DNA of 41,703 nt from an uncultured Bacteroidia bacterium (GTDB lineage: Bacteria; Bacteroidota; Bacteroidia; JANWVE01): assembly GCA_938028625.1 (NCBI GenBank), contig CALIZB010000087.1, positions 1 through 41,703 of the forward strand, read 5' to 3'. This document shows, piece after piece, positions 1 through 24,622 of the stretch (positions are counted from its first letter, which is position 1; each line of letters begins with the position of its first letter). Made by a program: the position numbers and the translations under genes. The notes beneath the pieces were generated by a model. That model had not been told where the DNA came from. It searched no databases and worked only from the letters and a program-made list of their open reading frames with translations.

Positions 1-1
1 T

Positions 2-202
2 GCAGGAAAAGTCGCAAGTAAACAAATTTTACAAATCAATACAAATGTAGATTTGACAGGTGAAAGCAGGCTTTTGGTAGAAGATAGAGTTAGAGAAGGA
101 CAAAAGAAAAAAGGTAGTTTAGCATCTGAAAGATTTGAAATCAGATTGAGAAATCAAGAAGAGGTGCAAATTATGATAAATGCCTTAAAAGATAAGATTT
201 AG
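2..202 (+). CDS. 3' end of an unidentified CDS (truncated by window edge), ...AGKVASKQILQINTNVDLTGESRLLVEDRVREGQKKKGSLASERFEIRLRNQEEVQIMINALKDKI*
   Basis: Open reading frame from window start to TAG at 200-202; the stop overlaps the GTG start of the next ORF (TAGTG). Family not recognised. Confidence 0.5.
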   Translation, partial: AGKVASKQILQINTNVDLTGESRLLVEDRVREGQKKKGSLASERFEIRLRNQEEVQIMINALKDKI

Positions 203-645
203 TGGAACTTTTATTTCCCTACCAAAAAGTGAATGGGAAACACAAAATCATACCCGAAGAAACTCTAAAAACTGACTTTCCTTTGGCTTACGATTACCTG
301 ATAAGCGTAAAAAGCGAATTAGATAAACGAGATAACGGAAAACCTAATCCTATGGCGTGGTATACTTTTAGGAGAACACAAAGTTTAGACAACAGTTTTG
401 GGAAAAAAATTATTTTTTCACCTATGAACAAAAAACCTAATTTTATACTATACGAAAACGAAGATTGTACTTTTTATTCAGGTTACTGCATCAAGTATTC
501 GGGAGATTATCATTTCTTACTTAATCAATTAAACTCGGATAGAATGCAAAAGTTCATAGAAATGTCAAGTAGAGATTTTAGGGATGGATGGAAAGCCTAT
601 AATAAAAAAATCATAGAAGAGTTTATAGTAGAGTTTTACACTTGA
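202..645 (+). CDS. C-terminal target-recognition (TaqI/Eco57I-like specificity) domain of an adenine-specific DNA methyltransferase; truncated or stand-alone
   Basis: LLFPYQKVNGKHKIIPEETLKTDFPLAYDYLISVKSELDKRDNGKPNPMAWYTFRRTQSL...GKKIIFSP...FYSGYCIKYSGDYHFLLNQLNSDRMQKFIEMSSRDFRDGWKAYNKK matches the pattern of type II N6-adenine methylase C-termini. The catalytic N-terminal half is absent. Confidence 0.7.
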   Translation: MELLFPYQKVNGKHKIIPEETLKTDFPLAYDYLISVKSELDKRDNGKPNPMAWYTFRRTQSLDNSFGKKIIFSPMNKKPNFILYENEDCTFYSGYCIKYSGDYHFLLNQLNSDRMQKFIEMSSRDFRDGWKAYNKKIIEEFIVEFYT

Positions 646-666: not shown

Positions 667-1695
667 TTATAATTGTATTCTCAAACGTACGACATACATA
701 TTATCTTCTACATCTAATAGTAAGCCATGCTTTTTAGGGTACAAAATCTCTAACCTTCGTTCTAAATTTTGAATACCTGTTTTGGTAGAAGCAATATTGG
801 TTAGTCGTGTAATGGGAATAATATTTTTGGTAGTAAAGAAGAACTCCTGTTCTTTAATGAAAGCATAAATTTCAATATGCGTCTGTTCTACGCCTACCCC
901 ATGCTTAAAGCAGTTTTCCACAAAGGGAATAAGCAGCATAGGTGCTATAGTATAAGATGAAAAATCTCCCTGTTTTTGAAAATTAACAAAAGCATTTTTG
1001 GGCAGGCGCATACGTTCCAGAGCAATGTAGTTTTCTATCATTTCTAATTCTGCATTCAAAGGTACTTGTTCTTTTTTACTGCTTTCTAACTGGTATCGCA
1101 TCAAGTCTGCTAATTGAAGTATCATTTCATTAGCATTCTCGGAATTAGTTAAATTGACGGCATAGATATTATTAAGCGTATTAAATAAAAAATGTGGATT
1201 TATTTGAGATTTTAACAGATTTAATTCACTTTCTATTTGTTTAGCTTTAGCTTCTTGTAATTGATACTGCTTAGATAAGCCATTTTTCATAAATCGTATG
1301 CCTACAATCATCAGCGTACTAAATAATAGGTTAATTAGAGTTTGTATAAAACTTGCTCCGCTTGCAAGCACATACACTAATATCGTGTGCATAGAAAATG
1401 CAATAATTAAACCTGTAAACGCAAGGCTTAAAAAATAGGCAAAGTATTTTCGTTTGCTGAAAAGTATATCAAAGAGATAGATATTAAGATAAGTATATAT
1501 CATGATAGGTACAAGCAAAGTACTGACCAATACAGCCGCAAAAGTTCCTTGGTCGTTGATACGTGAAAGTAATAAACGGCGAGTATCTATGTTATTGTGT
1601 AAAGCATCAAATGAAATAATCCATAAAATTAACCAAAAAAGTACATGATATACAGGACGATAGCGATTTATTTGTTCTATCCAGTTTTTACTCAT
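667..1695 (-). CDS. LytS/YehU-family sensor histidine kinase (His_kinase PF06580-like)
   Basis: N-terminal TM helices, then LLKSQINPHFLFNTLNNIYAV phospho-acceptor motif and a FVENCFKHG N-box. Confidence 0.9.
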   Translation of the reverse strand: MSKNWIEQINRYRPVYHVLFWLILWIISFDALHNNIDTRRLLLSRINDQGTFAAVLVSTLLVPIMIYTYLNIYLFDILFSKRKYFAYFLSLAFTGLIIAFSMHTILVYVLASGASFIQTLINLLFSTLMIVGIRFMKNGLSKQYQLQEAKAKQIESELNLLKSQINPHFLFNTLNNIYAVNLTNSENANEMILQLADLMRYQLESSKKEQVPLNAELEMIENYIALERMRLPKNAFVNFQKQGDFSSYTIAPMLLIPFVENCFKHGVGVEQTHIEIYAFIKEQEFFFTTKNIIPITRLTNIASTKTGIQNLERRLEILYPKKHGLLLDVEDNMYVVRLRIQL

Positions 1696-24263: not shown

Positions 24264-24312
24264 TGGTATAGGTTGTGTGCTGTGCAAAACAAAAAAGATG
24301 TTATTTGTACTG

Positions 24313-24622
24313 TTAAAATAAGGAATATGTTATTTTTTTGATTTTATTATATTCATTAGTTTCTGTATTTTCAATAATAAACTCTTCCAATGCTTTTTTG
24401 TTATAGGCTTTAAGATTAGGTTCTCCGTTATCTCTTTTGTCTAATTCATCTTTATAGATTTAAAGAGCGACCATCACCACAAGCTGGGTCTAAAATTGCT
24501 TTTCCCAAAATACTTGGGCTATCAAAACCTATATCAGATAAAATCTTTTCTACTATAAAACGTGGAGTATAAACCTTGCCTAATAGTTTTTGATTGTCGT
24601 ACTTTTTATTCAGCGAAGCCAT
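24313..24622 (-). pseudogene. Internally deleted Eco57I/TaqI-type adenine DNA methyltransferase
   Basis: Frame A (24622-24452): MASLNKKYDNQKLLGKVYTPRFIVEKILSDIGFDSPSILGKAILDPACGDGRSLNL* contains the GKVYTP and DPACGDG (motif I) blocks. Frame B (24456-24313): YKDELDKRDNGEPNLKAYNKKALEEFIIENTETNEYNKIKKITYSLF* matches blocks VKSELDKRDNGKPN and KAYNKKIIEEFIVE of the 202-645 ORF. Confidence 0.85.

What the first reader, a model, noticed from the sequence alone, without database searches (positions are those of the whole stretch)
202..645. Recognition-domain-only methyltransferase ORF at the left edge, homologous to the 24.3-kb remnant
The 147-aa ORF starts inside the C-terminal specificity domain of an Eco57I/TaqI-like methylase with no catalytic half. 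It is coupled by a TAGTG overlap to an unrelated upstream frame. Two of its blocks, VKSELDKRDNGKPN and KAYNKKIIEEFIVE, each match the 24.3-kb pseudogene at 11 of 14 residues (YKDELDKRDNGEPN, KAYNKKALEEFIIE). The two loci are therefore fragments of related R-M genes about 24 kb apart. This is either repeated acquisition and decay or a target-recognition module kept as a stand-alone part.
Basis: partly seen in the sequence, partly recalled or inferred. Interest (0 to 1): 0.6.

Follow-up and report, generated by a model that had tools for sequence, protein, structure and literature searches.

The report
Decapitated methyltransferase stub behind a nuclease
The short gene is the leftover 3' third of an ordinary DNA-methylating gene whose front was replaced by a candidate anti-phage nuclease gene, and the same join is found in a second bacterium, so it records defence genes being swapped between species rather than a new kind of working protein.

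Summary
ORF 202-645 (147 aa, GTG start overlapping the upstream stop as TAGTG) corresponds to residues 351-495 of a 498-aa Eco57I-like adenine methyltransferase. A congener carries the full-length gene at 71% identity. The 24.3-kb locus is a deletion remnant of the same family, in a gap that is empty of it in two congeners.

The upstream frame is neither a methyltransferase nor that family's endonuclease. It is the intact C-terminus of a 318-aa predicted PD-(D/E)XK nuclease matching PADLOC's candidate family PDC-S18. Four genomes carry that nuclease alone, without the methyltransferase piece.

A second MAG has the identical nuclease|GTG|stub junction at the start of its contig. The two contigs are 97% identical over bases 1-271 (the first 141 exactly) and then 72% identical. 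There the second copy is closer to a different full-length methyltransferase. This mosaic indicates one fusion followed by homologous recombination inside the methyltransferase 3' region. The stub also lacks the start of the specificity region, and all other relatives surveyed are full length, frameshifted in place or cut by a contig end.

Most likely it is a recently decapitated, non-catalytic pseudogene: ordinary R-M decay plus a useful example of defence-gene exchange. A working stand-alone recognition module is unlikely but not excluded.

The parts
2..202 (+). C-terminal 66 residues of a predicted PD-(D/E)XK nuclease of the PADLOC PDC-S18 candidate family; the rest lies beyond the contig edge; stop TAG at 200-202 is in the native place
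   Evidence: 74-97% identity to residues 253-318 of 318-aa proteins in five genomes; full-length relatives hit PDC-S18, E 5.8e-23
1..271 (.). Segment shared almost identically (8 mismatches in 271; first 141 bases exact) with contig L026 of another species; breakpoint at about base 271, inside the methyltransferase stub
202..645 (+). 147-aa ORF (GTG start): 3' stub of an Eco57I-like N6-adenine methyltransferase, residues about 351-495 of 498; no catalytic motifs and not the whole specificity region
24458..24622 (-). Remnant of a second copy: residues 1-55 of the same methyltransferase family, including motif I (DPACGDG)
   Evidence: 72% identity to the congener enzyme, E 5e-19
24310..24456 (-). 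C-terminal pieces of the same second copy in another frame (YKDELDKRDNGEPN fused to LKAYNKKALEEFIIE), i.e. a frameshift and two internal deletions

Best explanation
The ORF is the 3' stub of a type II (Eco57I/TaqI-like) adenine methyltransferase gene. Its 5' two thirds were replaced by a PDC-S18-like PD-(D/E)XK nuclease gene (probably anti-phage), which sits directly upstream with its own stop codon intact. The fusion arose once by a non-homologous event. The nuclease plus the first ~70 bases of the stub then moved between species by homologous recombination, using the 3' part of a resident methyltransferase gene as the landing site. The stub is probably translated, if at all, by coupling to the nuclease stop (TAGTG), but has no catalytic domain and an incomplete recognition domain, so it is most likely a young pseudogene. 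The 24.3-kb locus is a separate, older remnant of the same methyltransferase family. Shown: the homologies, the junction in two genomes, the mosaic, and the second locus with its methyltransferase-free counterpart in congeners. Inferred: the direction of transfer, loss of function of the stub, and the antiviral role of the nuclease.
For: The stub aligns to residues 351-495 of full-length methyltransferases in G002, G490, G456, G496, G626 and G179. The upstream frame is the intact C-terminus of a 318-aa nuclease that stands alone in four genomes and hits PDC-S18. The same TAG|TG junction and GTG-start stub occur in L026, followed there by different genes. A changepoint lies at base 271: 3% mismatch before, 28% after (log-likelihood gain 41.4; best of 500 shuffles 7.1). 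Codons 3-23 are 93.7% identical between the two contigs but 70-75% to full-length genes; in codons 24-143 L026 is closer to G490 (76.9%) than to the window (71.7%), and L026 groups with G490 (bootstrap 82). L026's first 200 bp are 31% GC in a 46% GC contig, so the segment is foreign there. In G360 a PDC-S18 relative also lies beside a truncated methyltransferase within an R-M cluster.
Against: Both stubs are free of internal stops (147 and 178 aa). Synonymous sites between them are saturated while dN is only about 0.19, so most of their divergence accumulated under protein constraint. That is expected if each stub was part of a full-length gene until recently, but it does not exclude selection on the stub itself. 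The DNA upstream of the nuclease C-terminus is not available.
Confidence: 0.78

Rival explanations
1. The stub is a working stand-alone recognition subunit, translated with the nuclease by stop-start coupling and targeting it to DNA sites.
For: TAGTG coupling preserved in two species; both stubs open; nuclease intact at its C-terminus.
Against: Four full-length nuclease relatives have no stub. The stub lacks the front of the specificity region. The two stubs share history only over bases 1-271. The window copy has changes at otherwise invariant sites (V to M, A to T, G to R, T to N), though in number this is no more than some full-length copies show.
Confidence: 0.07
2. The junction is an assembly chimera at a MAG contig edge.
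For: Both contigs begin at the same base and share exactly 141 bases, the largest default k of the MEGAHIT assembler (my knowledge), so they probably come from one assembly.
Against: The junction at 202/203 lies beyond the shared 141 bases and is present in both contigs, which differ at 4 positions between 142 and 202 and 4 more up to 271, so it was assembled from two different sets of reads.
Confidence: 0.07
3. A sequencing frameshift hides one full-length methyltransferase.
For: None beyond the short length of the ORF.
Against: The upstream frame is a different protein with its own native C-terminus; no frame in 1-201 matches the methyltransferase.
Confidence: 0.01

Closest known systems
Type II Eco57I/TaqI-like gamma N6-adenine DNA methyltransferases (Pfam Eco57I PF07669, TaqI_C PF12950; M.TaqI, M.BseCI)
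   Same: Residues 351-495 of the family, about 70% identical to full-length relatives
   Different: Lacks the whole catalytic domain and the first part of the specificity region
PADLOC PDC-S18, a single-gene phage defence candidate
   Same: Full-length relatives of the upstream frame match PDC-S18 over nearly the whole protein; PDCs were collected by a guilt-by-embedding approach (PMC12988326), and here too the gene is joined to R-M material
   Different: Only the C-terminus is in the window; PDC-S18 activity is not reported in any paper found
R-M system decay and exchange in defence islands
   Same: Truncated methyltransferase, foreign GC in one host, remnant in a gap without it in congeners, recombination mosaic
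   Different: The identical nuclease-methyltransferase junction seen in two species with a mapped breakpoint

Membership tests
Eco57I-like type II methyltransferase | Homology to family members along the aligned part | tested here: met
   71% identity to G002, MTase_II E 9.8e-56
Eco57I-like type II methyltransferase | Catalytic motifs I (DPACGDG) and IV (NPPY) | tested here: not met
   Absent from 202-645 and from frame 2-202; the motifs lie at residues 44 and 132 of the full enzyme
Eco57I-like type II methyltransferase | Complete C-terminal specificity domain | tested here: not met
   Starts at residue 351; the conserved segment at 288 is missing
Eco57I-like type II methyltransferase | Partner endonuclease gene upstream | tested here: not met
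   The R protein found next to G179/G002/G456/G496 enzymes has no match in the window
PDC-S18 (upstream frame) | Profile match over the whole protein | tested here: met
   Met for the full-length relatives L030 (E 5.8e-23) and G360; the window holds only the last 66 residues
PDC-S18 (upstream frame) | PD-(D/E)XK active site | tested here: inconclusive
   GRxDILAY...FVxFELK pattern conserved in relatives; predicted strand/helix order fits but the model is low confidence, top PDB fold hits are restriction enzymes below significance; this part lies outside the window
PDC-S18 (upstream frame) | Antiviral activity | not testable with these tools
   Needs a plaque assay

The most novel reading that the evidence does not exclude
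The nuclease and the methyltransferase C-terminal piece form a coupled two-part restriction factor in which a stand-alone recognition module, exchanged between species by recombination, directs a single-gene nuclease.
Probability: 0.06. Interest if true: 0.75.

Novelty: new member of a known kind. Interest (0 to 1): 0.3.

Why it matters
It is a base-resolved snapshot of how a candidate phage-defence nuclease enters an R-M locus. One illegitimate join was followed by transfer into another species through homology with the resident methyltransferase gene. That is a concrete mechanism behind guilt-by-embedding associations, and a caution against reading short specificity-domain ORFs as functional modules.

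Tried and rejected
Pfam, NCBIfam, PHROGs and PDB searches with the 66-aa tail gave nothing; only the scan for related genome loci identified it. The tail and the ORF have no relatives in IMG/VR; the tail has none in plasmids, and the full nuclease has none in plasmids and only weak partial phage hits. An AlphaFold model of the ORF is unusable (pLDDT 45). Searching G000 and G099 for the rest of the nuclease found nothing, so the upstream contig is unbinned; no metagenome scan was available. dN/dS could not be computed because synonymous sites are saturated. The idea that the 24.3-kb piece is the missing front half of this same gene was rejected: it has its own copy of the C-terminal blocks.

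Full report
Observation. The window is one complete contig (G000:C87, 41,703 bp) of a 2.9-Mb, 99%-complete genome in 170 contigs. The ORF at 202-645 and its TAGTG overlap with the open frame 2-202 are as described.

What the ORF is. A congener (G002) carries a 498-aa Eco57I-like methyltransferase whose residues 351-495 match the ORF at 71%. Further full-length relatives of 494-524 aa occur in G179, G490, G456, G496 and G626, several with a ~240-aa partner gene upstream. In the full enzyme, motif I is at 44, NPPY at 132 and the conserved IHVGITTL at 288. The ORF therefore lacks the catalytic half and the front of the specificity region.

What the upstream frame is. The 66 residues match, at 74-97%, the C-terminus of a 318-aa protein in five genomes. 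In four of these (L027-L030) the protein is complete, ends at the same place and is followed by unrelated genes such as folD, truA and asnS (my reading of the translations). Full-length relatives hit PADLOC PDC-S18 (E 5.8e-23) and show a GRxDILAY...FVxFELK pattern typical of PD-(D/E)XK nucleases. Sub-threshold Pfam hits (HSDR_N_2, YhcG_C, VRR_NUC, SduA_C) and the predicted strand/helix order agree. PDCs were collected by guilt-by-embedding and are mostly unvalidated (PMC12988326). The nuclease is rare: 4 of 395 genomes of the class.

The same junction in a second species. Contig L026 (CALHUI010000020.1, a Cytophagales MAG at 46% GC; the window is 35%) begins at the same base, has the same nuclease tail, the same TAGTG junction and a 178-aa stub, and then different genes. 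The first 141 bases are identical. Since 141 is the largest default k of MEGAHIT (my knowledge), both contigs probably leave one shared node of a single assembly, and the upstream contig is unbinned; neither genome holds the rest of the nuclease. The junction itself lies outside those 141 bases in two sequences that already differ, so it is unlikely to be an assembly artefact.

Mosaic. Mismatches jump from 8 in 271 bases to 28% afterwards (log-likelihood gain 41.4; best of 500 shuffles 7.1). Over codons 3-23 the two stubs are 93.7% identical while each is 70-75% identical to full-length genes. Over codons 24-143 they are 71.7% identical, and L026 is closer to G490 (76.9%). The simplest account is one nuclease-methyltransferase fusion, followed by transfer with a crossover at about base 271 inside a resident methyltransferase gene. 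The first 200 bp of L026 have 31% GC in a 46% GC contig, which suggests that host received the segment.

The 24.3-kb locus. Residues 1-55 (24622-24458, minus) are followed in another frame by two short C-terminal blocks (24456-24310). In G001 and G002 the flanking genes are neighbours with only about 90-110 bp between the aligned flanks and no methyltransferase, against about 530 bp in the window. This is a second, older acquisition that decayed by deletion. It is not the missing front of the first copy, because both keep the same C-terminal blocks.

Mechanism and function. Decapitation of a methyltransferase by an incoming nuclease gene explains all observations. A functional recognition module would predict recurrent stubs beside this nuclease. 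None were found beyond the L026/window pair. Other short copies in the phylum are frameshifted or decayed in place (L076, L077), and one in the class is cut by a contig end (G205). G360 shows a related nuclease next to another truncated methyltransferase inside an R-M cluster, consistent with a habit of lying in R-M loci but not with this particular pairing.

Limits. The DNA left of base 1 is not held, stub function cannot be measured by dN/dS because synonymous sites are saturated, and the antiviral role of the nuclease is inferred from family membership only.

Noticed in passing
L046:4655-4760: GC-rich repeat (GCGTTCCCCTGCGGGTCGGGCTTTCC...CCTAACGC) between a truncated methyltransferase and the PDC-S18 relative; it looks like an integron attC-type site.
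   Followed up: no
L076 (G617) and L077 (G596): Second, decaying copies of the same broad methyltransferase family (in-frame stop or frameshifts), each in a genome that also has an open full-length copy.
   Followed up: partly
L048:2-166 (G205:C27): Another contig that begins inside the C-terminal part of this methyltransferase family.
   Followed up: partly
window 667-1695: The LytS-type histidine kinase next to the stub has different downstream neighbours in each of three congeneric genomes, so the left edge of the window is a variable site.
   Followed up: partly
L031:8362-9043 (G002): The partner endonuclease gene upstream of the intact congener methyltransferase aligns in two frames, which suggests a frameshift, so that methyltransferase may be an orphan.
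   Followed up: no
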